Below, one piece after another: positions 5,801 through 42,590 of a stretch of DNA of 54,880 bases; position 1 is the first letter of the stretch, and each line of letters starts with the position of its first letter. The stretch covers positions 1-54,880 of the IMG/VR virus record IMGVR_UViG_3300032323_001970; one strand, given 5' to 3'. Source of the DNA: a virus. Below the pieces are notes generated by a model. The model ran no database searches and had not been told where the DNA came from. It saw only the letters and a program-made list of their open reading frames with translations. The translations under genes and the position numbers were made by a program.

Positions 5801-6090
5801 TGACCGATCAAGAATTTATTCAGCTACTGAATGACGTAGCTAAAAAAGCCAAGCCGTTTAACCGCGAGCTTAAACAAATTGACTCCATGGACATGGTCCT
5901 TAAGGAGACTGGCCTAGACAGCCTAGACATGCTGATGTGCACCGTCTATCTGTGCGAAATCTACAACGTAGAAGATGAAAAAAGCAAGGAAATGCAGGGC
6001 GAGACCCCGCAAGACCTGTTTAATTTCTTGAAGGAATGGGGGCGCAGACAGCCCACTGACCTGGCCCAGGCCAAGGAGTGGTTTGTATGA
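5800..6090 (+). CDS. Acyl carrier protein
   Basis: I chose the ATG overlapping the previous stop, giving 96 residues. It is acidic and helical, with the ACP signature: ETGLDSLDMLMCTVYLCEIY, in which Ser41 of the DSLD motif matches the serine that carries 4'-phosphopantetheine. Helix III and IV equivalents follow (TPQDLFNFLKEW). A 16-residue C-terminal extension goes beyond a usual 75-80-residue ACP. The next gene encodes a ketoacyl synthase and overlaps this one by 4 nt, so this is a carrier/condensing-enzyme pair. A phosphopantetheinyl transferase is not seen, so loading would rely on the host AcpS. Placement among tail genes is unusual. Confidence 0.82.
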   Translation: MTDQEFIQLLNDVAKKAKPFNRELKQIDSMDMVLKETGLDSLDMLMCTVYLCEIYNVEDEKSKEMQGETPQDLFNFLKEWGRRQPTDLAQAKEWFV

Positions 6091-7208
6091 GAATCTTCCT
6101 CACCGAAAGCCGCACTGCGTGCACTGAGGACACGATTCTCTTCGAGAACCATACTTTTCCCCAAAAAGTCCACCTGTTTCCAGAGACCTATAACCGGGTC
6201 AAGACAGGCCTGGTCAATCCGGCTCACCAAGTAGCCGAAAAAGTCTTAGATCCTGACCTTCTGAAGCGCCTTCGGGAGACCCAGACCGGCAAGACTGCCT
6301 TCCTCCTGGCCGCTGGAAACAGCAATTTTGCCAACGAAGGCTCCAAGCTCAACCGCGAGAATGAATGGACCTACAACTACAAGGTCCTTCCGCTGTCCCT
6401 GACCCAGATCTATGCCGGTCGGGTTGCCGCGCAGTGCGGAGAAATTGACCACACGGCTACGGATGCTACCGCCTGTACTTCTAGCCTCAAGGTCTTGATG
6501 GACGTCCAAACCCTCATCAAGTTCTACGGCTTCGACCGGGTCATCGTACTGGCCGTCGAGGACCAGGTGAACAACATGACCCTCCAGTTCTTTGGAGAAG
6601 CCAAGGCGACTTTGACAGAAAGCATGGCCGAGGCTCACCAGGTGAGCCCCAGTGCATTCGATTCCAAGAACTTTGGGTTTTATATAGGTCAAGGCGCCGT
6701 GTTGGCCGTATTTGAGTCAGAAGAAGCCGTAAGGCGCGGCACTTTTCCTGCTAGGGCAGAACTTGTGTCGGCCTGGACGGCAACCGAAGTGGCTACAAAT
6801 GCTATCGGTCAACGAGAAGACGGGCAAGGGTTTAGACGAGCCATCGAGGGCGCGCTGAAACTTTGTCAAGTTTCTTCAGAACAAATTAAAATCGTGAAAA
6901 CTCATGGCACCGGTACCCGGTCTAACAATGATGCCGAAAAGGCGGCTTTGGAAAGGTGCTTGAGTGGGTTTGTAGCGACATCGTATAAGCAACGAATCGG
7001 CCATACGATGGGAGCGAGCGGACTGTTAGAGACCCTCTTGCTGTTCAATGATTTAGAAAAGGGAACTGTCCCTGGGATCTTGAATCGGACTGAAGAGGAT
7101 CATGTGTTCCTCTCTGAAGCGGTTGAAGCACCTAAAGGGATGGTGTTAAGCTTGAGTGCTGGCATGGGCAACGTGTTCAGTGCTGCGCTTTTCAACATGA
7201 GGATCTAA
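6087..7208 (+). CDS. Beta-ketoacyl-ACP synthase (KAS/FabF-like)
   Basis: This 373-residue protein has a thiolase-fold condensing-enzyme layout. The nucleophile is Cys130 in TDATACTSSLK. His273 lies in KTHGTGTRSNNDAE. Lys301 and His306 lie in YKQRIGHTMGASGLLE, with the five-residue K-to-H spacing of FabF. GQGAVLAVFE (about 201-210) matches the GAG strand of the family. All Cys-His-His-Lys residues are kept, so it should be able to condense acyl thioesters. Differences are a short N-terminus compared with about 410 residues in FabF, and LSAGMGNVFSAALF in place of the usual GFGGTN gating loop, suggesting an altered acyl substrate. The ATG at 6087 overlaps the ACP stop with AAGGAG upstream; a GTG nine bases earlier is possible. 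The next gene encodes an unrecognised protein. Confidence 0.85.
   Translation: MRIFLTESRTACTEDTILFENHTFPQKVHLFPETYNRVKTGLVNPAHQVAEKVLDPDLLKRLRETQTGKTAFLLAAGNSNFANEGSKLNRENEWTYNYKVLPLSLTQIYAGRVAAQCGEIDHTATDATACTSSLKVLMDVQTLIKFYGFDRVIVLAVEDQVNNMTLQFFGEAKATLTESMAEAHQVSPSAFDSKNFGFYIGQGAVLAVFESEEAVRRGTFPARAELVSAWTATEVATNAIGQREDGQGFRRAIEGALKLCQVSSEQIKIVKTHGTGTRSNNDAEKAALERCLSGFVATSYKQRIGHTMGASGLLETLLLFNDLEKGTVPGILNRTEEDHVFLSEAVEAPKGMVLSLSAGMGNVFSAALFNMRI
6632..6648. repeat. 17-bp perfect palindrome inside the KS gene, shared with the 33.25-kb intergenic region
   Basis: GGCTCACC, a central A, then GGTGAGCC. Together with flanking bases, a 23-nt stretch (6631-6653) recurs at 33254-33276 with a single difference. 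The coding phase here reads AEAHQVSPS. The role is unknown; it could be an operator or processing hairpin. Confidence 0.6.
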
Positions 7209-20202: not shown

Positions 20203-21060
20203 ATGATGGCAAACGCCAGAGGAAAGACCATTGACAACACGCACCTGAGCATTGATCAGGCTGAAGAACGCGGCTTCATTCACCGCGACTACATCGCCCA
20301 CTGCCTTCGCTGGACGCACGTGGCTAAGTGGATGGGCAACCCCAAGAACCGCAAGGACTGCAACCTGCTCGACATCGGCTGCGGCAAAGATGTGCCGCTG
20401 GCCAAGATGCTGATGACCAGCCGCATGGCTTCCGATGGCCTGAACTACATCGGCATTGACTACAACAAGCTCGAAATGCCGAAGGCCTTCGAGAATACCA
20501 AGTTCAAGCCGACCCTGATTGGCAACGTGGCTTTTCCAGATTGCACGCTGCCCGTTGAGAAGTTCAATGTCATCACCTGTTTTGAGGTGCTTGAGCATGT
20601 CGAGCCATTGCATGCCTACAAGATGCTTGAAGGCATCAAGGCGCGCCTTGCAGACGATGGTGTGGCTTTCATCAGTACTCCTGTCTATGACGAAAAGGTT
20701 GGCGCAGCAGACAACCACGTCAACGAGATGAGCTACGGCGCCATGCAGCTGATGCTGCACAAGGTCGGCTTGGAAGTTGACGCCCACTACGGCACTTTTG
20801 CCTCAATCAAAGACTACAAGCAGATGGTCGAAAAGGAAGACATCGATGGAGTGTTCAATCGCCTGCGTGATTACTACGACAGCAACTACTTGGCAACTAT
20901 CTTTGCCCCGCTTTACCCGAGCCGCTCACGCAACGTGCTCTGGCGAGTCAAATTGCCGACTAGTCAAGAGATGTTTGCGCCCGCAAAGTTTGTCGACATC
21001 CCCCACCCGCTCTCAAGCAGCGACGCCTGGCAGCCACTCTTTGACTACCTTGGAGAGTGA
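20203..21060 (+). CDS. Class I SAM-dependent methyltransferase
   Basis: The protein has 285 residues. SAM-binding motif I is LLDIGCGKD (about 55-63). An acidic strand end follows (YIGIDYNK), then the UbiE-like motif NVITCFEVLEHVEP (post-II/III) and DDGVAFISTPVYDEK (motif IV region). No DPPY/NPPY motif or target-recognition domain is present, so it is unlikely to be a DNA adenine/cytosine methylase of the restriction type. A small molecule, nucleotide, RNA or protein substrate is more likely. Two ATGs occur (20203, 20206); the second has better spacing from AGGAGA. It lies in a nucleotide-metabolism block. Confidence 0.85.
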   Translation: MMANARGKTIDNTHLSIDQAEERGFIHRDYIAHCLRWTHVAKWMGNPKNRKDCNLLDIGCGKDVPLAKMLMTSRMASDGLNYIGIDYNKLEMPKAFENTKFKPTLIGNVAFPDCTLPVEKFNVITCFEVLEHVEPLHAYKMLEGIKARLADDGVAFISTPVYDEKVGAADNHVNEMSYGAMQLMLHKVGLEVDAHYGTFASIKDYKQMVEKEDIDGVFNRLRDYYDSNYLATIFAPLYPSRSRNVLWRVKLPTSQEMFAPAKFVDIPHPLSSSDAWQPLFDYLGE

Positions 21061-21062
21061 GC

Positions 21063-21452
21063 ATGGACTTGTTCAACATGGTGGCGGCCTTCCACGAGAA
21101 GTTTGGCCTGGAGCCTACCAACCAGCCTGACTTTCCGATCAAGGAGATCGCCGAGCTCAAGAACGTCCACATGCAAGAAGAGCTCGATGAGATTAAGAAG
21201 GCGCTTGCCGAGGGAAACCTTGAGGAGTATTTCGACGGCCTGATTGATCTGATCTATGTTGCTCTTGGTGCTGCCTATTTAGGCGGCCTTCCATTCAACG
21301 AAGGCTTCAAGCGGGTCCACGAAGCCAACATGAAAAAAGTGCGCGCCTTGAGGCAAGAAGATAGCAAACGAGGTTCGACCTATGATATAGTGAAGCCTCC
21401 AGGATTCGTGGCTCCAACGCTTACGGACCTGATCAGAAAGGAGAAAGAATGA
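21063..21452 (+). CDS. MazG-like nucleotide pyrophosphohydrolase
   Basis: This 129-residue all-helical protein carries the metal-binding pattern of the MazG/all-alpha NTP-PPase superfamily: MQEELDEIKKAL (Glu39, Glu40, Glu43) and EEYFDGLIDLIYVALGAAYL (Glu54, Asp58, Asp62), then FKRVHEANMKKV. Such enzymes hydrolyse (d)NTPs to NMPs and pyrophosphate. Next to a kinase, a TS homologue and a dCMP deaminase it would help trim or redirect host nucleotide pools. I chose the ATG at 21063 because GGAG lies 7 nt upstream; an in-frame GTG at 21057 is too close to it. The product has a C-terminal extension of about 30 residues. Confidence 0.8.
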   Translation: MDLFNMVAAFHEKFGLEPTNQPDFPIKEIAELKNVHMQEELDEIKKALAEGNLEEYFDGLIDLIYVALGAAYLGGLPFNEGFKRVHEANMKKVRALRQEDSKRGSTYDIVKPPGFVAPTLTDLIRKEKE

Positions 21453-22441
21453 AAGGACTCATAGTCATTGATGGCTGCGATGGCACAGGCAAGACGACGC
21501 TTGCTCAAGCTATTTGCGACCGCCTTGGTGGTGTCTACATTCACAACACATACCGCTGGCCCAGCAAGATGCCGCTGTACCATACAGCCGCCTTGCATCG
21601 CGCGTTGAAGCTTGCACGCACGCAGCTTGTGGTCATCGATCGTTTGTGGATGAGTGAAGCCATCTACGCTGACGTGTATCGTGGTGGCAGCCCCTGGCCT
21701 CACATGGGTCGCATGATGGATCGCATGATCCGCAAGGTCGGTGGCGTCTACATCTTGGCTCAATCACCAGCCAATCATGCTGAGAAGTTTGAGCAGCTCA
21801 AGAGCGAGCGCGAAGAGATGTATGACAACGTCGATGAAGTGCGCAAGCGCTTTGACGTGTTGTTTGAAGGCGGTTACGCTGGCCACGATCGTGACTACGT
21901 TCAGCAGCTGTCTGTCTTTGGAATGCGCCGTCGAGATGATGTGCTGCCGTATCGCTTTGACGTAGAGGGTCGTGATCTGGATGTCTACATCGGCATGGTG
22001 TACTCTGTCCTTGAATCACGTTGGCAGAAGCAGTACGAGCCGGCCCTGCATCTGCACACGCAAAACTTTGCAGGCCACCTGCATGAAGCCAACATCATCT
22101 TCGTAGGTGACAAGGCCAATAGCAAGATGCGTGCAATCAGCTGGCCTTTCTATGACTTTGGCCATTGCAGCGAATTCTTTGCTGATGTGCTGCATGAGCT
22201 GTTGTTTGATGAGACTAAGGCTGTCTACATCAACGCGCACGATGGCAATGGTCCGTTGTACGTCAACGACTGTTTGCGTGCTAAGCCTTACATGAAGGTT
22301 GTTTGCCTTGGCAATGACGCTTACAACACCATGACTCAGTTTACGCGTCGTATTTACAAAGTCATGCACCCATCATTTGCAAAGCGCTTCAACAAGCGCA
22401 ATGAGTTCAAGCAAGAACTTCAGGAGATTCTCAATGGTTAA
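21449..22441 (+). CDS. P-loop (d)NMP-kinase-like protein fused to a uracil-DNA-glycosylase-like fold
   Basis: The protein has 330 residues. Residues 1-190 resemble thymidylate kinase: Walker A GCDGTGKTT (9-17), a VVIDRLWMSEAIYADVYRGG segment like the DRx motif, and GGVYILAQSP. Residues from about 210 resemble the family 4 UDG fold: IIFVGDKANSK (216-226, in place of GEAPG), FDETKAVYINAHDGNG, MKVVCLGNDAYNTM and MHPSF (306-310). The glycosylase-type catalytic site is not clearly preserved, so the second half could be a nucleotide- or base-recognition domain. With the adjacent TS homologue it probably phosphorylates a (modified) deoxynucleoside monophosphate. Start ATG overlaps the MazG-like stop; AAAGGAG precedes it. 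Confidence 0.72.
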   Translation: MKGLIVIDGCDGTGKTTLAQAICDRLGGVYIHNTYRWPSKMPLYHTAALHRALKLARTQLVVIDRLWMSEAIYADVYRGGSPWPHMGRMMDRMIRKVGGVYILAQSPANHAEKFEQLKSEREEMYDNVDEVRKRFDVLFEGGYAGHDRDYVQQLSVFGMRRRDDVLPYRFDVEGRDLDVYIGMVYSVLESRWQKQYEPALHLHTQNFAGHLHEANIIFVGDKANSKMRAISWPFYDFGHCSEFFADVLHELLFDETKAVYINAHDGNGPLYVNDCLRAKPYMKVVCLGNDAYNTMTQFTRRIYKVMHPSFAKRFNKRNEFKQELQEILNG

Positions 22442-23228
22442 CACTACCAACATGAACTGGCAAGGCCTGCTTGACGTCATTAGCCAGCATGGTCAGTTGA
22501 CGAGCCCAAGAGGCAAGAAGACAAAAGAGCTGCTTGGTTTTAAGTCGATGATCGACATGAACCAGCCTGTCATCACTATCAAGGAGCGCAATCTTGGCTA
22601 CAAGTTCATGGCAGCTGAAGCAGCTTGGATCATGTCAGGTGATAACCGCGTCAGCACCATCGCCCCTTTTAGTAAGGCGATCAGCAACTTCTCTGACGAC
22701 GGCATTCTTTTCTTTGGAGCCTATGGTCCACGCATTCGCGACCAGCTGGGCCACGTGGTGCAGTCCTTACTTGCAGATCAAGATTCACGTCAGGCGGTCA
22801 TCACCATCTGGCGTCCAAACCCTCGAGCTTCTAAAGACATCCCTTGCACCATCAGTTGCCAGTTTGTCATTCGCAATGACCTGATCCATTGCTTCATGAA
22901 CATGCGTTCGTCTGATGCTTGGCTTGGTGTGCCGTATGACTGGTTCAACTTCAGCATGCTGTCGGCGGGTGTTGCCTTGTTGCTGCGTCAGAAGGGCCTG
23001 AACGTCAAACTTGGAGCCTTGCATTTTTATGCTGCAAGCCAGCACCTCTATGAGGACAACTGGCACAAGGTCGATGCGTGTTTGACAGGCGAGATTCTTG
23101 GCGACTATGCCCCCATCAATCTTGACTACTTCAACGACTACGACCACCTTGTCAATCATCTTTGGACGTTGGCTCATGGTCATGTGCACAACGGATTTTT
23201 GAAAGAAGCTTCATCATGGAAAGGCTAA
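22434..23228 (+). CDS. Thymidylate-synthase homologue, predicted dCMP (hydroxymethyl)transferase
   Basis: The protein has 264 residues. TS landmarks are Glu62 in AEAAWIMSGDN, the YG turn in FGAYGPR, nucleophile Cys138 in IPCTISCQF, the phosphate-binding Arg158 in MRSSDAWLG, and HLY (204-206). The residue that in thymidylate synthase is the Asn of GLPFN (recognising uracil) is Asp169 here, in GVPYD. In T4 dCMP hydroxymethylase the same position is Asp, and Asn-to-Asp changes switch TS toward dCMP. The usual TS C-terminus (APVAI-type), needed for the methyl-forming step, is absent. I therefore infer dCMP as substrate, with 5-hydroxymethyl-dCMP as the likelier product. AGGAG lies 7 nt before the ATG. 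Confidence 0.78.
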   Translation: MVNTTNMNWQGLLDVISQHGQLTSPRGKKTKELLGFKSMIDMNQPVITIKERNLGYKFMAAEAAWIMSGDNRVSTIAPFSKAISNFSDDGILFFGAYGPRIRDQLGHVVQSLLADQDSRQAVITIWRPNPRASKDIPCTISCQFVIRNDLIHCFMNMRSSDAWLGVPYDWFNFSMLSAGVALLLRQKGLNVKLGALHFYAASQHLYEDNWHKVDACLTGEILGDYAPINLDYFNDYDHLVNHLWTLAHGHVHNGFLKEASSWKG

Positions 23229-23722
23229 GCAAAGATGAATACTTTTCGGAATTGGCTCTACTCGTTGCTCGGCGAAGTACTTGCGCTCGGAGGAGTGTGG
23301 GCTGCGTTCTCGTATCTCATCGTGGGCATATTCTCGGTACTGGTTATAACGGGGTGCCTCGTGGTCATACTCACTGCACTGACGTTCGCTGTCCCGGTGC
23401 TGCTTTGCCTTCGGGGACTGGCCTGGATGTATGTGAAGCTATTCATGCGGAACAAAACGCGCTCCTCCAGTGTAAGGACGTTGAGCAAATAGAAACGGCC
23501 TACGTGACTGCTATGCCCTGCATGACTTGCACAAAGCTTTTGCTGAACACAAGCTGCAGGCGCATCGTGTACGTTGAGCCGTACCCTCATGACGCCGCAA
23601 AACAACTATGGACAAAACATGGACGCATCATCGTATCAACCGCCGAAGCACTTTCCAAACCTGCTGCTCGCGAAACGTATAGCTATCGATTGCGAGACTC
23701 GCGACCCGAACTTAATGACTAA
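23216..23722 (+). CDS. dCMP deaminase
   Basis: The protein has 168 residues. The zinc-deaminase motifs are HAEQNAL (His77, Glu79) and PCMTC (Cys102, Cys105). N-terminal family features are SVGCVLV and GTGYNGVPRG, and HCTDVRCPG may give a second metal site as in T4-type dCMP deaminase. It converts dCMP to dUMP. The start at 23216 lies inside the TS-homologue gene (13-nt overlap). The C-terminal approximately 35 residues overlap the start of the polymerase gene in another frame; the last 28 residues are beyond the usual fold. An 85-codon membrane-like reading inside it in another frame is taken as a shadow. Confidence 0.87.
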   Translation: MERLSKDEYFSELALLVARRSTCARRSVGCVLVSHRGHILGTGYNGVPRGHTHCTDVRCPGAALPSGTGLDVCEAIHAEQNALLQCKDVEQIETAYVTAMPCMTCTKLLLNTSCRRIVYVEPYPHDAAKQLWTKHGRIIVSTAEALSKPAARETYSYRLRDSRPELND

Positions 23723-25481
23723 GGGACCGGGTGGCGTACGCAAGGATGGCTACATCGTTGGCTTTTCCGTTGCGACAGATGATGGCTTTGCCGAATACTA
23801 TCCGGTGCGTCATGCAGCTGGCGGGAATCTGAATCCTGACAACGCGTTTGCTTGGCTTCGCGACATGCTGAAGACAGACATTCCAAAGATCGGTGCCAAC
23901 CTGCCGTACGACCTCGAGTGGCTGCTGACAGAGGGCGTGAAGGTCGGAGGCCCTAAGTACGACGTACAAATCGCCGAACCTTTGCTGGATGAAGACCGCA
24001 TCACCTACAGGCTTGATGCCTTGGCAGAAGCTTATCTTGGCGAGCATAAGGACGAGACCGAGCTGATTGCTGCAGCAGTTCGCCGCGGTATCCATCCAAG
24101 CAAGGTCAAAGAAAGCCTCTGGCAGTTTCACGCAGGTGAAGTGGCGCCCTACGGACGCAAGGACGCAGACCTACCAATCCGCATCTTTGCCCAACAAGAG
24201 GTGTTGCTGCACGACGAGAAGTTGTGGGAAGTCTTCGACATCGAGACGCAGCTGGTTGACGTGCTGGTCGCCATGCGCCAAAAGGGGGTTCCTGTGGACC
24301 TTGATCGCGCCCACAAGGTCAAGACTCAACTACTTGATGAGCAAAGCCAGCTGATGGAGCGCCTGAAGAAGGTTGCTGAGCGGGATGTAGACATCTGGTC
24401 TGGTGATGATATACAGGCAGCCAGTGATGCACTGAAGCTGGATTACCCAAAGACTGAAAAGGGGAATGCTAGTTTTCCCAGTGAGTTTCTTGAAGCTAGT
24501 GAGCATGAGTTTTTCTCCTTGATTTCTAAGGTCCGGAAGCTCGACCGGGCCGGTGGAGTATTTATCGACAGCAAGATCATTCAGATGGAAAAAGATGGCA
24601 AGATTTATCCGACGTTCAGGCAGGTCAGAGACGACCGAGGAGGCACAAAGTCGGGGCGTTTTGCGTCGGCTAACCCGAACATGCAACAGGTACCAGCTCG
24701 AGATCCGGTGCTGGCGCCTCTTATCAGAAGCATCTTTGTACCCGAAGAAGGTTGCCAATGGGGTGTCTTCGACTACTCCCAACAGGAGCCTCGCGTCACG
24801 GTTCACTACAGCTATCTACGGGGCTTCCCTGGAGCTGAGACTGCGCGCAATCGGTATCTGGACGACCCTGATACTGACTACCATCAGCTGGTTGCAGACA
24901 TGGCTGGAATCAGTCGAAAAAATGCGAAGGTCTTGAATCTGGGTTTGGCCTACGGTATGGGGGCTGCTAAGGCAGCGACTCAACTGGGCTTGCCACCAGC
25001 AGAAGCCAAGCGTGTCTACGAGCAGTATCACGCCAACGTGCCATTCATCAAGGCACTCGGTGAGGAATGCACACGGATCGCAACCAACAGGGGCTATGTC
25101 AAGACGTTCTTGGGTCGCCGCCGCAGGTTCCAGTTGTTTGGGCCACCCAAGTACAGCCCTGGCCTGATTCCGTTGAAGAAAGATCTGGCTGAAGAAAAGT
25201 ATGGGCTCCCATTAAAGCGTTACTTCGTCCACAAGGCGATGAATGCGGTGATCCAGGGGTCATCGGCAGACATGATCAAGCTTGCGATGATCAATCTGTT
25301 CAAAAAAGGCGAAGTTCCTCATCTGACTATTCATGATGAATTGGACTTCAGTGTTCGTGACTTGGATCATGCGCGCATGATTCGACAGGAGATGTTGACA
25401 TGCGTGGACTTGGTAGTGCCATTAAAAGTCGATTGCGAGCTTGGGCCCAATTGGGGAGAAGCGGTGGAGGTGAAGCTATGA
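23619..25481 (+). CDS. polA: DNA polymerase, family A, with 3'-5' exonuclease
   Basis: This is a 620-residue product. Exonuclease residues are Asp24 and Glu26 in IAIDCETRDP, Asp98 in NLPYDLEW, and Tyr178/Asp182 in YGRKDAD. Polymerase motif A is FDYSQQEPR (Asp385). The O-helix motif B is RKNAKVLNLGLAYG, with Lys437 and Tyr445 and Leu441 at the position of E. coli Phe762. Motif C is IHDELDF (His572-Asp573). It replicates the phage genome with the AEP primase and helicases downstream. The start is uncertain: ATG 23619 gives the shortest overlap with the deaminase; ATG 23589 and TTG 23574 are also in frame. None has a clear SD, so translational coupling is likely. Confidence 0.93.
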   Translation: MDASSYQPPKHFPNLLLAKRIAIDCETRDPNLMTKGPGGVRKDGYIVGFSVATDDGFAEYYPVRHAAGGNLNPDNAFAWLRDMLKTDIPKIGANLPYDLEWLLTEGVKVGGPKYDVQIAEPLLDEDRITYRLDALAEAYLGEHKDETELIAAAVRRGIHPSKVKESLWQFHAGEVAPYGRKDADLPIRIFAQQEVLLHDEKLWEVFDIETQLVDVLVAMRQKGVPVDLDRAHKVKTQLLDEQSQLMERLKKVAERDVDIWSGDDIQAASDALKLDYPKTEKGNASFPSEFLEASEHEFFSLISKVRKLDRAGGVFIDSKIIQMEKDGKIYPTFRQVRDDRGGTKSGRFASANPNMQQVPARDPVLAPLIRSIFVPEEGCQWGVFDYSQQEPRVTVHYSYLRGFPGAETARNRYLDDPDTDYHQLVADMAGISRKNAKVLNLGLAYGMGAAKAATQLGLPPAEAKRVYEQYHANVPFIKALGEECTRIATNRGYVKTFLGRRRRFQLFGPPKYSPGLIPLKKDLAEEKYGLPLKRYFVHKAMNAVIQGSSADMIKLAMINLFKKGEVPHLTIHDELDFSVRDLDHARMIRQEMLTCVDLVVPLKVDCELGPNWGEAVEVKL

Positions 25482-26199: not shown

Positions 26200-26740
26200 A
26201 CAGGAAATGTTGGCCGACAGTCAGATGCCATCTGACCAAGGCCTCGGCAAGATCAGTACGCTTGCAGAGCGCTACACAGATCTTGATGAAGAGATCACAG
26301 AAGTTGAAAAACGACTGAAGTCTCTGAAGGAACAGGCCCGGGAGATTGCTGAAAAGCAGTTGCCTGAAGCCATGGCAGAAATTGGTGTTGCAAAGTTTAC
26401 GCTTACAGACGGCAGCGAAGTGACCGTCAAACCGTACTACAGCGCCAAGATCAGTGACGAGAAACGTGACGAGTGCTTTACCTGGTTGCAAGACCATGGT
26501 CACGAAGCGCTGATTAAAGACGAAGTCGTCCTGACATTCAATCGCGGTGAACACGACAAGGCAGAAGAATTCAAAGCCCGGCTGGAAGAGCAGGGACTGG
26601 AATATTCTGGCAAGATGGGTGTTCATCCTCAGACTTTGACAGCATTCGTCAAAGAGCAAGTGGAAAGCGGAGCCGAATTTCCCCTTGAACTTTTCAACGT
26701 GTACATCGGCCAAATCGCCAAAGTCAAAAGGAGTAAGTGA
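26192..26740 (+). CDS. Coiled-coil protein of the replication operon (possibly Gam-like)
   Basis: This 182-residue protein starts at an ATG with AGGAG 6 nt upstream, inside the end of the previous gene. Residues 28-62 form a coiled coil (DEEITEVEKRLKSLKEQA). A mixed alpha/beta domain follows (AKFTLTDGSEVTVKPYYSAK, then CFTWLQDHGHEALIKDE) with a Gly-rich PQTLTAFVKEQVESGAEF near the end. The helix-then-small-beta-domain layout recalls phage Gam-type or DUF7173-type proteins. I would not go beyond an accessory role in replication or protection of DNA ends. It overlaps the SSB-like gene by 1 nt. Confidence 0.72.
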   Translation: MLEQEMLADSQMPSDQGLGKISTLAERYTDLDEEITEVEKRLKSLKEQAREIAEKQLPEAMAEIGVAKFTLTDGSEVTVKPYYSAKISDEKRDECFTWLQDHGHEALIKDEVVLTFNRGEHDKAEEFKARLEEQGLEYSGKMGVHPQTLTAFVKEQVESGAEFPLELFNVYIGQIAKVKRSK

Positions 26741-27510
26741 TGGTTAAGAAAACTGAAGTGGCTGTCGCACAGTCAACCGCCGTTGTGGCATTCGCAGACG
26801 ACATGATGGCAGACGCAGGTCTCGGTTTCGAGAACGTGTCCGCAAACGATGTCGCTATTCCGTACCTCAAGGTGTTGCAGGCCTTGTCGCCTGAACTTCG
26901 TGGAGTCACCAAGGTTGCTGGTGCTGAAGAGGGCCTGATCATCAACACCGTCACGGGTCAGTTGATGAAAGAGGCTCGCATCATCCCTTGCGCCTTTAAG
27001 AAGAGCTACGTTGAGTGGACTCCTCGTGAGGCCGGCGGCGGTTTGGTCAAGGAACACACGGATGAGCGCATCCTTGAAAAGACCAAGAAAAACGAACGCA
27101 ATCAAGACGTGCTGCCCAACGGCAACTTGATCGTCACGACTGCCTACCACTACGTGTTGGTGTTGGCCGAAGGCGGTTTTGAGCGCGCCCTGATTGCAAT
27201 GTCTTCGACGCAGCTGAAGAAGTCGCGCCGCTGGTTGGGCCAGATGATGAGCCTTCAAGTCAAGGTCGGCGACAAGTCGTTCACTCCGCCTCCCTTTAGC
27301 CATAGCTACCATGTGGGAACCGGCATGGAGACGAAAGACGCCAACAGCTGGTATGGCTGGCTGATCAACGATCCTAAGATGGTGCAAGACCGTGGCATCT
27401 ACGAGGCAGCTAAGAAGTTTGGCCAAGACGTAACTGCCGGCCTCGTTAAGGTCGCTGAGCCGCCTGCAGATGCTCCGACGGCGGCAGGAGAAGACGATGT
27501 CCCATATTAA
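26740..27510 (+). CDS. Single-stranded DNA-binding-like protein
   Basis: The protein has 256 residues. Central strands are beta-rich with aromatic residues (ARIIPCAFKKSYVEWTPRE, LIVTTAYHYVLVLAEGGFER). A basic segment (SSTQLKKSRRWLGQM) and a C-terminal acidic tail ending AGEDDVPY follow. A short acidic tail ending in an aromatic is typical of phage and bacterial SSBs, where it recruits polymerase or primase. Its place between polymerase and primase supports this. A classic OB-fold alignment could not be made by eye, so the call is by layout. AAAAGGAG precedes the ATG. Confidence 0.65.
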   Translation: MVKKTEVAVAQSTAVVAFADDMMADAGLGFENVSANDVAIPYLKVLQALSPELRGVTKVAGAEEGLIINTVTGQLMKEARIIPCAFKKSYVEWTPREAGGGLVKEHTDERILEKTKKNERNQDVLPNGNLIVTTAYHYVLVLAEGGFERALIAMSSTQLKKSRRWLGQMMSLQVKVGDKSFTPPPFSHSYHVGTGMETKDANSWYGWLINDPKMVQDRGIYEAAKKFGQDVTAGLVKVAEPPADAPTAAGEDDVPY

Positions 27511-27784: not shown

Positions 27785-29308
27785 ATGCTTGCACAAAGAT
27801 TCATGGCGCTATTTTCCGGGCACACAGGTGCTTACGGGACCTATGACATCGATGGCAAGAATACTGGCCTGAAGGTTCAGGGGACAGCAGTCACAAAACG
27901 AGCAGCAGTAACAGAGCAGCTCTGGGACGGACACCTAGCTGGAACAAAGGGAATCGGTATTGTGCCAATCAGAGAGGACAACACATGCCTCTTTGGTGCG
28001 ATTGACATTGATGAATACAAGAATTTTGACCTGAAAGATGCCGTTGACGCTTGCGCCAAGGCCAAGGCACCGGTTGCAGTCTGCCGCAGCAAGTCTGGCG
28101 GCGCCCACATCTACATGTTTTTCAGCGAGCCGATACCGGCTGCTGATGTCAAACGAAAGCTTGGTGAATTGGCCAGCGTGATCGGCCACCCGAGTTGCGA
28201 GATTTTCCCTAAGCAAGATCAAGTGTTGTCTGAACGCGGTGACGTCGGCAACTGGATCAACATGCCTTACTTCGAAGGCGACCAGACCAGTCGCTATGGG
28301 GTTGCTGAAAACGGCAGCCCGATGCAGATCGAAGATTTTCTTACCTTTGCCGAAGGGCTCAAGCTTACCAGAGCCAACTTCGTGCGCCTTAAGTTTGCAG
28401 AAGCCAAGAGCAAGAAGCGGGCATTCAAGGATGCACCTCCATGTATCGAGAAACTGGCTCAGACAGGCTTCCCAGAAGGCACCCGCAACAACGGCCTGTT
28501 TAATCTGTGTGTGCTGGCACGCAAGATGAAACCCGATGATTGGCAGCCGCTGGTCATGCAGATGAACATCGATGTCATGGACCCGCCGCTTCCTGAATCT
28601 GAAGCCATGGGCGTCATCCAGTCCATGCAGAACAGCGACTATCAATACACGTGCAGCAGGCCTCCGTTACGGCCTAACTGCAATGCCGGCATGTGCCGCA
28701 TGCGCAAGTATGGCGTGGGCCAGCAGCAAGGGGCTCCAAGGCTTTCATCACTGAGCAAATACAACACCGAACCGCCGATCTGGTTCCTTGACATGGACAA
28801 CGGCATGCGCTTGTCACTGTCTACTGAGGACTTGCAGAACCAGTCAGGTTTCCAGAAGCGCTGCATGGAGGCCATGAACTACATGCCTCCCAAGATGAAC
28901 CTGACGCAGTGGAATCAGATGATCCAGGCTCTTCTTGCAGACGTGGTCGTCATTGAGGCTCCTGAGGACGCAAGCCCCAAGGGCCAGTTTATCGACCTGC
29001 TGGAACGTTTCTGCACCGGCAAGGCGCAGGCCAAGCACCTTGATGAGATCTTGCTGGGTAAACCGTTCCACGACCGTGACGAAAACCGCCACTTGTTTAG
29101 GCTGGCAGACTTCATCAATTTCCTCGACAAGCAGAAGTTCAAGGAGTTCAAGCTGAATCAGATCAGCTCAGCCATTCGTGACTACGGCGGCGAGACTCAC
29201 ACCTACAAGCTGAATGGCAAGCGGGCAACGGTCTGGTCTGTTCCTGCATTCTCATTCCAAGACAAAGGCCATCAGACTCCGGACTTTAACAGTGGAAGCC
29301 TCATCTAA
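27785..29308 (+). CDS. AEP-type primase
   Basis: This 507-residue protein has archaeo-eukaryotic primase catalytic features: CLFGAIDIDEYKNF (Asp74, Asp76), CRSKSGGAHIYMFF (SxSGGxH, His108), and EIFPKQDQV as the third acidic region. Residues around 285-310 contain a cysteine cluster (YTCSRPPLRPNCNAGMCRMR), probably a zinc-binding module. The C-terminal 150 residues are helical and could be a PriCT-like part. It would lay primers for the family A polymerase. The presence of an AEP primase instead of a T7-like primase-helicase defines the replisome type. AACGAGAAAGAA precedes the ATG. Confidence 0.82.
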   Translation: MLAQRFMALFSGHTGAYGTYDIDGKNTGLKVQGTAVTKRAAVTEQLWDGHLAGTKGIGIVPIREDNTCLFGAIDIDEYKNFDLKDAVDACAKAKAPVAVCRSKSGGAHIYMFFSEPIPAADVKRKLGELASVIGHPSCEIFPKQDQVLSERGDVGNWINMPYFEGDQTSRYGVAENGSPMQIEDFLTFAEGLKLTRANFVRLKFAEAKSKKRAFKDAPPCIEKLAQTGFPEGTRNNGLFNLCVLARKMKPDDWQPLVMQMNIDVMDPPLPESEAMGVIQSMQNSDYQYTCSRPPLRPNCNAGMCRMRKYGVGQQQGAPRLSSLSKYNTEPPIWFLDMDNGMRLSLSTEDLQNQSGFQKRCMEAMNYMPPKMNLTQWNQMIQALLADVVVIEAPEDASPKGQFIDLLERFCTGKAQAKHLDEILLGKPFHDRDENRHLFRLADFINFLDKQKFKEFKLNQISSAIRDYGGETHTYKLNGKRATVWSVPAFSFQDKGHQTPDFNSGSLI

Positions 29309-30800
29309 ACCCAAGATCATCCTGGGACCGCCCGGAACCGGCAAGACGACTACGTTGATGAACATCATCGAGTCGCTGCTGGAGAAGGGCGTTCGGCCTG
29401 AAGACATTGGCTTCATTAGCTTCACCAAGAAAGCTACAAATGAGGCTAGGGATAAGGCTCGTTCCCGGTTTGGTTTTGATGCAGATAGGCTTCCATTCTT
29501 CAGGACGATCCACAGCCTTGCGTTCAGGCAGCTGGGACTGAGTAGGCAGCAGGTCATGCAGCACAACCACTACCAAGAACTTTGCGATGAGCTGGGGGTT
29601 GAGATCACAGGGCGCCAAACTGGCGAAGACGGCACGTTGGTTGGTATGGCACAGGGTGACAAGCTGCGTTTTGTCGAAGGCATGGCAAGGATCCGGTGTG
29701 TGCCACTCAAGCAGCAGTGGGAAGAGTTAAATGACGACGATCTTGGCTGGTTTGAGCTGGAGCAGTTTGCAAAGGCTCTCAAGGAATACAAGGACAACTC
29801 TGGCCTGATCGACTACACTGACATGCTTGAGTTGATGCGGTCAGAAGGCTTCGTACCTAAATTAAAGGCTCTGCTGGTTGATGAGGCACAAGACCTATCA
29901 AAGCTGCAATGGTCCGTTGTTGAACGAATGATGGAGAAGGCAGATGAGACCTATATTGCTGGAGACGACGATCAGGCAATCTTTAGATGGGCTGGAGCAG
30001 ACGTTGATCACTTCATTGGCCTCGACGGGGACGTGCGTGTACTCGATCAGTCTTACCGGATCCCCTCCGTTGTTCACGATTTGTCCTTTGACATTATCAA
30101 AGCTGTATCTCGACGACGAGAAAAGCAATTCAAGCCAGCAGCCCATGAAGGATCTATCACCTACCACAACGACATCGAACACGTAGACATGGGCCAAGGA
30201 ACATGGCTCCTGCTTGCTAGGAATGTCTATATGCTCAGGGAAATGGTTGAGTTATGCCATCGTGAGGGCTACGCATACGAGTGTCAAGGAATGAGCCCTC
30301 GTAAGTCTGAGGCACTGCTGGCCATCAGGAGCTGGGAGAAGCTTCGCAAGGGCGACTTCATCCAAGCAGATCAACTGAAGCTGGTCTATGCTCACATGTC
30401 AAAGCGGATGGTCGATCACGGTCATCTGTCCTTGAAGACGTTGACAGAAGACATGGTCAACATGGACCTGCTGCAGCAGAAGTACGGGCTGCAGACCAAG
30501 GCCATCTGGCACACGGCTCTTGACCGCATCAGCGACGAGGAAAAGGAATACTTCCTTGCAGCCTTAAGACAAGGCGAATCGTTGTCAGGAGATCCACGGA
30601 TTACCATCAGCACGATCCACGGATCTAAAGGTGGTGAGGCTGACAACGTATTGCTGGTCACTGACATCAGTCCCAAGACCTACAACAGCTACCAAGAGAA
30701 TCAAGACGATGAGGTTCGCGTGTTTTACGTGGCAGCAACGCGGACCAAGAAGAACTTGCACATCATCACGCCGCGCACACAAAGGTACTTTGACTTATGA
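29292..30800 (+). CDS. Superfamily 1 (UvrD/Rep-like) DNA helicase
   Basis: The product is about 502 residues starting from a GTG inside the end of the primase gene; no ATG is available nearby. Motifs in order are Walker A LGPPGTGKTT (11-20), motif Ia GFISFTKKATNEARD, motif II LLVDEAQDLSKLQW (about 194-207), motif III AGDDDQAIFRWAGAD, motif IV LDQSYRIP, motif V STIHGSKGGEADNV and motif VI VAATRTKKNLHI. All catalytic motifs are intact. It unwinds DNA ahead of the fork or in recombination. It is shorter than E. coli UvrD (720), as is common for phage forms. Confidence 0.88.
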   Translation: MEASSKPKIILGPPGTGKTTTLMNIIESLLEKGVRPEDIGFISFTKKATNEARDKARSRFGFDADRLPFFRTIHSLAFRQLGLSRQQVMQHNHYQELCDELGVEITGRQTGEDGTLVGMAQGDKLRFVEGMARIRCVPLKQQWEELNDDDLGWFELEQFAKALKEYKDNSGLIDYTDMLELMRSEGFVPKLKALLVDEAQDLSKLQWSVVERMMEKADETYIAGDDDQAIFRWAGADVDHFIGLDGDVRVLDQSYRIPSVVHDLSFDIIKAVSRRREKQFKPAAHEGSITYHNDIEHVDMGQGTWLLLARNVYMLREMVELCHREGYAYECQGMSPRKSEALLAIRSWEKLRKGDFIQADQLKLVYAHMSKRMVDHGHLSLKTLTEDMVNMDLLQQKYGLQTKAIWHTALDRISDEEKEYFLAALRQGESLSGDPRITISTIHGSKGGEADNVLLVTDISPKTYNSYQENQDDEVRVFYVAATRTKKNLHIITPRTQRYFDL

Positions 30801-31432
30801 GCTTCCTAGTCGCAAACATCCCTCCCATAAAGTGCTTTGTTCGCAAAGAGTTTCTTTACAACCACGAATCCGGACATGGTGAGCTTGAGCCATGCGTGTG
30901 GATGACGGCCAAGGCCATCAAGGGCCAGGCATTCAGGATTGAATCCATGCTGACGAACTACGGAGCCTTGTATGACAAGCTCCCTATCAGCGCATACGTG
31001 TGGAAGCCGGTCGAAGAGCCGCTACCGCTTGACTTCCTGCAGATCTGGGATTGCTTGTCGTATGACATGGCAGTCATCGAGAAGTCAAACCTGCGGGGAC
31101 TCAAGGTCAAGTTCTTTGGCAAGGACAAGCAGTTCCATTTCGGCAACTACCTGTTCACCATTGACTTTGCAGCACCTGACACCAACCGCATCGACACCAG
31201 CTTCAGCGAAGGGGTTCAAGAGCATAAGAGCTACAACTTCATCCAGCTCGACAACGGCCAGTTCGCTTGCCAGCCCAACAACCGCTGCCTGTGGTACGAC
31301 GTGTCATTGGTCCCTGCAACCCTGAAGACCCCTGACTTCAAGATCCCGACCCAGGTCTACAGCGTCGAGAACCACGCCAAGTGGTCTGCCAAGGATGAGT
31401 GGTTCTACAGCTTCGAGGAGCTCAACAAGTGA
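30797..31432 (+). CDS. Unknown protein between the two helicases
   Basis: This 211-residue alpha/beta protein is rich in aromatic residues: PCVWMTAKAIKGQAFRIES, PISAYVWKPVEEPLPLDFLQ, FHFGNYLFTIDFAAPDTNRI, WYDVSLVPATLKTPDFKIPT. I do not recognise the family and see no catalytic signature. It overlaps helicase genes at both ends (ATGA and GTGA), so it is translated with them and may be a helicase partner. Confidence 0.78.
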   Translation: MSFLVANIPPIKCFVRKEFLYNHESGHGELEPCVWMTAKAIKGQAFRIESMLTNYGALYDKLPISAYVWKPVEEPLPLDFLQIWDCLSYDMAVIEKSNLRGLKVKFFGKDKQFHFGNYLFTIDFAAPDTNRIDTSFSEGVQEHKSYNFIQLDNGQFACQPNNRCLWYDVSLVPATLKTPDFKIPTQVYSVENHAKWSAKDEWFYSFEELNK

Positions 31433-42170: not shown

Positions 42171-42590
42171 ATGCTACTTGAAACCCCCATGTCCTTCAGC
42201 TATGCCTCATTGGACGAGGCCTTCCCAGCAGTCGATTGCGGCCATGAACCCCTGGGTTCCCGCGTGATTGTTCAAGTCCGCAAAGCCAAGAATCAAACGG
42301 CAGGCGGCATCTTTATCCCGGAAGAAGCGCGAAAGACGGAAGCCAGCAATACCCAGATCGCCAAAGTCGTGGCCATCGGTTCATTGGCTTACAAGAATCG
42401 GAACACCATGGAACCCTGGCCAGAAGGCTCCTGGTGCGAAGTTGGTGCCTACGTCCGTGCACCTAAATACGGCGGTGATCGTTGGACCGTGAGGTCTGGC
42501 GATGAGGAGGTCGAATTTGTGATGTTCAATGACTTAGACATTCTTGCCAAGGTCACTGGAGATCCCACTGCGATCCGTGCGTTTATCTAA
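42171..42590 (+). CDS. GroES-like co-chaperonin
   Basis: This 139-residue protein has a Cpn10 fold pattern: PLGSRVIVQVRKAKNQTAGG (27-46), whose TAGGIFIP (43-50) matches the mobile loop that docks on GroEL. Next come IAKVVAIGSLAY, EVGAYVRAPKYGGDRWTV and MFNDLDILAKV. It has an N-terminal addition of about 25 residues and insertions compared with the 97-residue host GroES. Phage co-chaperonins such as T4 gp31 replace GroES so that GroEL can fold the capsid protein. The location among head genes, upstream of scaffold and capsid protein, fits that role. Confidence 0.85.
   Translation: MLLETPMSFSYASLDEAFPAVDCGHEPLGSRVIVQVRKAKNQTAGGIFIPEEARKTEASNTQIAKVVAIGSLAYKNRNTMEPWPEGSWCEVGAYVRAPKYGGDRWTVRSGDEEVEFVMFNDLDILAKVTGDPTAIRAFI

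What the first reader, a model, noticed from the sequence alone, without database searches (positions are those of the whole stretch)
22434..23228. Thymidylate-synthase homologue rewired toward dCMP
Asp169 stands where thymidylate synthase has the uracil-recognising Asn. The same Asp is found in T4 dCMP hydroxymethylase, and Asn-to-Asp substitutions in TS switch preference to dCMP. The C-terminal tail needed for the reductive methyl step is missing, which favours hydroxymethyl-dCMP as product. The phage DNA may therefore carry modified cytosine.
Basis: partly seen in the sequence, partly recalled or inferred. Interest (0 to 1): 0.75.

Follow-up and report, generated by a model that had tools for sequence, protein, structure and literature searches.

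The report
Phage cytosine-modifying enzyme and gene cassette
This virus carries an enzyme that almost certainly makes a modified form of cytosine for its DNA; it sits in a conserved five-gene set that phages from different lineages share, one of whose lab-isolated carriers has DNA that nearly all cutting enzymes tested fail to cut.

Summary
The ORF at 22434-23228 encodes a 264-residue thymidylate-synthase homologue with Asp169 at the uracil-recognising Asn position (E. coli N177, T4 gp42 Asp179). Asp135, three residues before catalytic Cys138, matches T4 Asp145, which activates the hydroxylating water; TS has Leu there. 228 of 231 TS sequences examined carry both Asps. The exceptions are E. 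coli ThyA and two 5hmU-type enzymes. Predicted activity: dCMP to 5-hydroxymethyl-dCMP.

The gene lies in an overlapping five-gene operon: class I methyltransferase, MazG/PRA-PH NTP-pyrophosphohydrolase, TMK-like kinase fused to a UDG-fold domain, this enzyme, dCMP deaminase. The same cassette occurs in isolated phage AXL3, whose DNA resisted 35 of 37 restriction enzymes; only AATT and TTAA cutters worked. That fits modified cytosine and not 5hmU.

The methyltransferase is nearly exclusive to these cassettes. In relatives lacking it the set can hold a carbamoyltransferase, of the type shown to act on 5hmC, or other genes. It is therefore probably a tailoring enzyme for 5hmC; product unknown.

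dCMP hydroxymethylases with PRA-PH and dCMP deaminase are already known, so the enzyme is a new member of a known kind. The methyltransferase cassette is the new variant.

The parts
22434..23228 (+). dCMP hydroxymethylase (TS superfamily, D-C-D type), 264 aa
   Evidence: Pfam/PHROG TS; nearest PDB sequence relatives are MilA CMP 5-hydroxymethylase, 2e-22; residue alignment
22938..22940 (+). Asp169 codon, at EcTS N177 / T4 gp42 D179 / MilA D186: cytosine selector
   Evidence: alignment; invariant in A1
22836..22838 (+). Asp135 codon, three before the catalytic Cys, at T4 gp42 D145 (EcTS L143): hydroxymethylase marker
   Evidence: alignment; mechanism from PMC6400193
22845..22847 (+). Cys138 codon, catalytic nucleophile (EcTS C146, T4 C148)
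   Evidence: invariant
21449..22441 (+). TMK-like P-loop kinase (res. 1-191) fused to UDG-fold domain (res. ~205-330); likely hm-dCMP kinase plus a domain of unknown role
   Evidence: AF2 pLDDT 93.7; TMK Z 13.5, rmsd 3.1, 163 aligned; UdgX and TthUDG Foldseek hits; Pfam UDG 6e-4
21057..21452 (+). PRA-PH/MazG-like NTP pyrophosphohydrolase; likely dCTPase (role of T4 gp56)
   Evidence: Pfam PF01503 5.7e-13, PHROG 671 1.8e-25; role inferred
20203..21060 (+). class I SAM methyltransferase, likely tailoring enzyme for hmC
   Evidence: Pfam PF13489 6.8e-15; AF2 pLDDT 88.6; Z 18.9 to CmoM and ChlM; linkage to TS-D
23216..23722 (+). dCMP deaminase
   Evidence: Pfam PF00383 4.1e-22, PHROG 174 9.5e-38
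23574..25481 (+). family A DNA polymerase, next gene; would incorporate the modified nucleotide (upstream limit uncertain: overlaps the deaminase by 149 nt in this ORF call)
   Evidence: Pfam PF00476 4.4e-57

Best explanation
The gene is a phage dCMP hydroxymethylase. Asp169 binds and protonates the cytosine ring, Cys138 attacks C6, 5,10-methylene-THF gives the one-carbon unit, and a water activated by Asp135 adds to the methylene, giving 5-hydroxymethyl-dCMP. The neighbours complete a T4-like pathway. The PRA-PH enzyme destroys dCTP to dCMP, the TMK-like domain phosphorylates hm-dCMP, host NDP kinase makes hm-dCTP, the phage polymerase incorporates it, and dCMP deaminase feeds thymidylate. 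The adjacent methyltransferase then probably decorates the hydroxymethyl group, taking the place that glucosyl- or carbamoyltransferases have in other phages. Shown here: residues, fold family, operon, conservation, linkage. Inferred: every enzyme activity, the order of steps and the final base.
For: D169, D135, C138, E62, Y97 and D161 align with T4 gp42 catalytic residues (mechanism). Two-residue code: ThyA L/N, SP8 hmU enzyme D/N, T4 and MilA D/D, window D/D; 228/231 sequences D-C-D. The residues that give MilA its ribose preference (K133, A176) are R119 and S159 here, as in deoxy-specific enzymes. Cassette genes overlap by 4, 4, 8 and 13 nt. The same five genes occur in AXL3, PW916 and MW202621. 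AXL3 DNA resisted 35 of 37 enzymes, cut only by TasI and Tru1I; reference resistance is 81.9% for 5hmC, 94.3% for glucosyl-hmC, 89.9% for 5mC and 8.3% for 5hmU DNA. TS Asp177 with PRA-PH and dCMP deaminase is associated with modified-cytosine contigs in MetaGPA. The methyltransferase is in 5 of 50,697 phage records, all TS-D phages, and 48 of 50 methyltransferase loci carry TS-D. 0 of 101 methyltransferase loci also carry a carbamoyltransferase or the family-X genes, against 9 of 23 loci without it.
Against: No biochemical or mass-spectrometric data for this virus or any cassette member. T4 Ser94, proposed as part of the hydroxymethylase signature, is Gly95 here, although the SP8 hmU enzyme has Ala and still makes hmU. 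Restriction resistance of AXL3 could come from modified guanine or another system; a second S. maltophilia phage, DLP4, resists a similar panel and its genes were not examined here. Locus sampling was by similarity to the window and AXL3, so the linkage counts are inflated by kinship. The methyltransferase substrate is unknown and its fold is shared by hundreds of small-molecule and tRNA methyltransferases.
Confidence: 0.87

Rival explanations
1. dCMP methylase of the Xp12 type: same Asp, but hydride transfer gives 5-methyl-dCMP and the DNA carries 5mC.
For: Asn-to-Asp in TS alone yields a dCMP methylase (Liu & Santi 1992, cited). Xp12 DNA shows 89.9% restriction resistance, close to AXL3.
Against: Asp135 replaces the Leu that TS uses, Trp83 is Phe86, and the TS tail is absent. 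D145N abolishes hydroxymethylation in T4. A methylase yields DHF and leaves no hydroxyl for the carbamoyltransferase found in sister cassettes.
Confidence: 0.07
2. Ordinary thymidylate synthase, as annotated in AXL3 and in the Pelagibacter phages, working with dCMP deaminase and the TMK-like kinase to make dTTP.
For: Database names; the deaminase-TS-TMK neighbourhood fits on its face.
Against: N177 and L143 are both replaced in every family member; no TS tail; AXL3 already has a ThyX, which its authors remarked on.
Confidence: 0.03
3. dUMP hydroxymethylase giving 5hmU DNA, as PW916 is annotated.
For: SP8 is a relative in the alignment and also has Asp at the C-3 site.
Against: SP8 and Montesquieu keep Asn; 5hmU DNA is resistant to only 8.3% of enzymes, AXL3 to 95%.
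Confidence: 0.03
4. The methyltransferase has no part in base modification; it is a passenger or acts on RNA or small molecules. (This concerns the tailoring step only and is compatible with the hydroxymethylase reading.)
For: Fold neighbours include tRNA and small-molecule methyltransferases.
Against: Near-exclusive linkage in more than one gene order, and other enzymes in its stead in relatives.
Confidence: 0.35

Closest known systems
T4 gp42 dCMP hydroxymethylase and the T4 hmC pathway (gp56 dCTPase, gp42, gp1 kinase, cd deaminase, glucosyltransferases)
   Same: Catalytic Asp/Asp/Cys set, no TS tail, same set of supporting activities
   Different: Only remote sequence similarity (phmmer 3e-6); Gly for Ser94; different pyrophosphohydrolase and kinase families; methyltransferase instead of glucosyltransferase; compact operon
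MilA, CMP 5-hydroxymethylase of mildiomycin biosynthesis (5b6d)
   Same: Best sequence match in PDB; same two Asps
   Different: Arg119 and Ser159 replace the Lys and Ala that give MilA its ribose preference; no MilA C-terminal helical domain
MetaGPA Asp177 TS + carbamoyltransferase contigs (PMC8670742)
   Same: Asp177, PRA-PH and dCMP deaminase neighbours; two sister loci, L058 and L064, have that carbamoyltransferase
   Different: Window has a methyltransferase and a kinase-UDG fusion in place of the carbamoyltransferase and short kinase
SPO1/SP8 dUMP hydroxymethylase
   Same: Asp at the C-3 site, Phe at the Trp83 site, Gln at R127
   Different: Asn at 177, so uracil

Membership tests
dCMP hydroxymethylase (T4 gp42 type) | Asp at EcTS N177 position | tested here: met
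   D169
dCMP hydroxymethylase (T4 gp42 type) | Asp or Glu three residues before catalytic Cys | tested here: met
   D135, C138; criterion from PMC6400193
dCMP hydroxymethylase (T4 gp42 type) | Ser or Thr two residues before the catalytic Tyr (Ser94-x-Tyr96) | tested here: inconclusive
   Tyr97 present but Gly95, invariant in the family; SP8 hmU enzyme has Ala, so Ser is not required in all hydroxymethylases
dCMP hydroxymethylase (T4 gp42 type) | No TS-type C-terminal tail | tested here: met
   C-terminus of similar length but unrelated sequence
dCMP hydroxymethylase (T4 gp42 type) | hm-dCMP produced from dCMP; 5hmC-derived base in DNA | not testable with these tools
   needs enzyme assay and LC-MS
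Thymidylate synthase ThyA | Asn at position 177 | tested here: not met
   Asp169
Thymidylate synthase ThyA | Leu143, Trp83 and closing C-terminal tail | tested here: not met
   Asp135, Phe86, unrelated C-terminus
CMP hydroxymethylase MilA | Lys133 and Ala176 (ribose preference) | tested here: not met
   R119 and S159 at those positions
dCMP methylase (Xp12) | residues of the Xp12 enzyme at 143, 83 and tail | not tested
   Xp12 record MT664984 is not in the collection
UDG superfamily (C-terminal domain of 21449-22441) | UDG fold with an HP motif | tested here: met
   Foldseek UdgX 1.7e-4, TthUDG 7e-4; HP-x-x-x-K-R-F motif conserved
UDG superfamily (C-terminal domain of 21449-22441) | uracil-excising activity | not testable with these tools
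   no assay

The most novel reading that the evidence does not exclude
The cassette makes a previously undescribed DNA base in which a SAM-dependent methyltransferase modifies 5-hydroxymethylcytosine (for example 5-methoxymethylcytosine), with the UDG-fold domain on the kinase acting in base handling or in removal of unmodified nucleotides.
Probability: 0.35. Interest if true: 0.8.

Novelty: new variant of a known kind. Interest (0 to 1): 0.55.

Why it matters
It offers an explanation for the restriction-resistant DNA of isolated phage AXL3, published in 2020 with unknown modification, and for its apparently redundant thymidylate synthase next to ThyX. It also points to a methyltransferase as a new tailoring enzyme for 5hmC, testable on existing phages. 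Similar cassettes occur in many viral contigs, so cytosine replacement may be commoner outside T4-like phages than annotation suggests, since these genes are usually called thymidylate synthase.

Tried and rejected
Label 'aGPT-PPlase' for the ~330-400 aa gene in seven methyltransferase-less loci: first given from a remembered motif, then not confirmed (BLASTP E 0.012 to the Montesquieu protein, no profile or Pfam/PHROG match), so it is called family X; its neighbour is a PLP enzyme (PF00291 1.7e-9). Idea that the UDG-like domain always goes with the methyltransferase: rejected, it is detected in 73 of 101 methyltransferase loci and also in 4 of 7 family-X loci. Idea that the separate 'G:T/U glycosylase' of MW202510 is the same domain: no profile match. 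A ThyX in the window genome: none found. Xp12 as a methylase control: record not held. Literature search for 5-methoxymethylcytosine in phage: nothing in the library. Iyer 2013 and the thymidine-hypermodification paper are not held. Tree: the careful search did not finish; the quick tree is used only for the 99%-supported cassette clade, and the places of T4, ThyA, SP8 and MilA in it are not reliable.

Full report
Observation. The ORF at 22434-23228 starts with ATG, overlaps the stop of the upstream gene by 8 nt, and encodes 264 aa. It belongs to the thymidylate synthase superfamily. Its nearest solved relatives by sequence are not thymidylate synthases but MilA, a CMP 5-hydroxymethylase (2e-22; ThyA enzymes follow at 1e-12 or weaker). 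Alignment with E. coli ThyA, T4 gp42 and SP8 puts Asp169 exactly on N177/D179. The claim about the tail is right in substance but not in form: the C-terminus is about as long as in ThyA but unrelated in sequence.

A second marker. Park et al. (PMC6400193) showed that T4 Asp145, three residues before the catalytic Cys, activates the water that makes the product hydroxymethyl instead of methyl; ThyA has Leu. The window has Asp135 there. The pair of positions reads as a code: ThyA L/N (methyl, uracil), SP8 D/N (hydroxymethyl, uracil), T4 and MilA D/D (hydroxymethyl, cytosine), window D/D. Across 231 distinct TS sequences gathered here (some are overlapping fragments of one contig), 228 are D-C-D; the exceptions are ThyA, SP8 and the Glutamicibacter phage Montesquieu enzyme. 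Ser94 of T4 is Gly95 here; SP8, which makes hmU, has Ala, so this does not count strongly against. Arg119 and Ser159 stand where MilA has the Lys and Ala behind its preference for ribose, so dCMP is expected and not CMP.

The cassette. Five genes overlap start to stop: methyltransferase (20203-21060), PRA-PH/MazG-like pyrophosphohydrolase (21057-21452), kinase-UDG fusion (21449-22441), the hydroxymethylase, and dCMP deaminase (23216-23722), followed by DNA polymerase A. The window is a whole virus record. Most functions of the T4 hmC pathway have a counterpart: dCTP removal, hydroxymethylation, monophosphate kinase, deaminase. Roles of the individual enzymes are inferred from family and position.

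Conservation. Of 174 non-redundant loci, 124 have more than 5 kb upstream; 101 of these carry the methyltransferase, 2 a carbamoyltransferase, 7 a family-X gene, usually with a PLP enzyme, and 14 neither, T4 among them. No locus has the methyltransferase together with the carbamoyltransferase or family X. The two carbamoyltransferase loci (Pfam PF16861 and PF02543) have a short kinase without the UDG-like part. One further locus, L124, has a weak match to the T4 alpha-glucosyltransferase family (3e-4, under the cut-off), and L112, L124, L170 and L207 have C5-cytosine methylases. The pyrophosphohydrolase, kinase, hydroxymethylase and deaminase thus look like a common core with interchangeable tailoring genes, though some loci keep only part of it. 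In the reverse test, 48 of 50 methyltransferase loci with at least 4 kb downstream carry the hydroxymethylase, in more than one gene order; one of the two exceptions, L250, comes from the same contig as L083, which has the gene. In the phage collection the methyltransferase occurs in 5 of 50,697 records, all of phages with this hydroxymethylase. These samples were drawn by similarity, so the figures describe linkage and are not independent events.

Wet-lab anchor. Stenotrophomonas phage AXL3 has the same five genes in the same order. Its DNA resisted 35 of 37 restriction enzymes; only TasI (AATT) and Tru1I (TTAA) cut (PMC7504290). Its authors named gp28 a thymidylate synthase, remarked on the additional ThyX, and left the modification unknown. 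Flodman et al. (PMC7653180) give the yardstick: resistance 81.9% for 5hmC, 94.3% for glucosyl-5hmC, 89.9% for 5mC, 8.3% for 5hmU, with AATT and TTAA enzymes cutting T4 DNA fully. AXL3 fits a fully modified cytosine, and its extent of resistance is nearer to a decorated base than to plain 5hmC, but enzyme panels differ and modified guanine is not excluded. MetaGPA (PMC8670742) independently links Asp177 TS, PRA-PH and dCMP deaminase domains to modified-cytosine contigs and proved 5hmC carbamoylation.

Structures. The kinase-UDG model (pLDDT 93.7) has a thymidylate-kinase fold in residues 1-191 (Z 13.5, rmsd 3.1, 163 aligned) and a C-terminal part that Foldseek matches to UdgX and Thermus UDG; its role is unknown. 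The methyltransferase model (pLDDT 88.6) is class I; the tied best matches are CmoM (Z 18.9, rmsd 3.9, 218 aligned) and ChlM (Z 18.9, rmsd 2.6, 188 aligned). That both methylate side-chain carboxyl groups, CmoM on a C5-linked group of a tRNA uridine, is my own knowledge. This is suggestive only; many unrelated methyltransferases score within two or three units.

Judgement. As an enzyme it is a new member of a known kind. The methyltransferase-bearing cassette with a kinase-UDG fusion was not found described in the literature that could be searched here; it is a new variant, and its final base is open.

Noticed in passing
window 6078-7208 (+): Beta-ketoacyl synthase homologue (Pfam PF02801 1e-16; NCBIfam fabF 4e-32) encoded among structural genes of the phage; unusual cargo.
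   Followed up: no
window 30797-31432 (+) and 42171-42590 (+): PHROG matches to a 'ferredoxin' family (1.7e-85) and to a GroES co-chaperonin (7e-12).
   Followed up: no
window 27785-29308 (+): Primase of the TOTE-type archaeo-eukaryotic primase family near a Pam3 gp34-like protein (26737-27510).
   Followed up: no
L056, L065, L070, L116, L164, L176, L177: TS-D loci with a conserved ~330-400 aa protein family without a significant Pfam or PHROG match in the members scanned, with a PLP enzyme and a second conserved gene; possible further hmC tailoring route.
   Followed up: partly
L112, L124, L170, L207: C5-cytosine DNA methylase genes near TS-D genes in loci without the methyltransferase; odd if cytosine C5 is already substituted.
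   Followed up: no
L208, L209 (Pelagibacter phages HTVC200P, HTVC119P): Isolated marine phages carry the D-C-D enzyme annotated as thymidylate synthase, with only a short kinase beside it; possible hmC phages.
   Followed up: partly
L213 (Bacillus phage G gp319), L214 (Agathobaculum phage AB434P2): More distant D-C-D enzymes annotated as thymidylate synthase or deoxyuridylate hydroxymethyltransferase.
   Followed up: no
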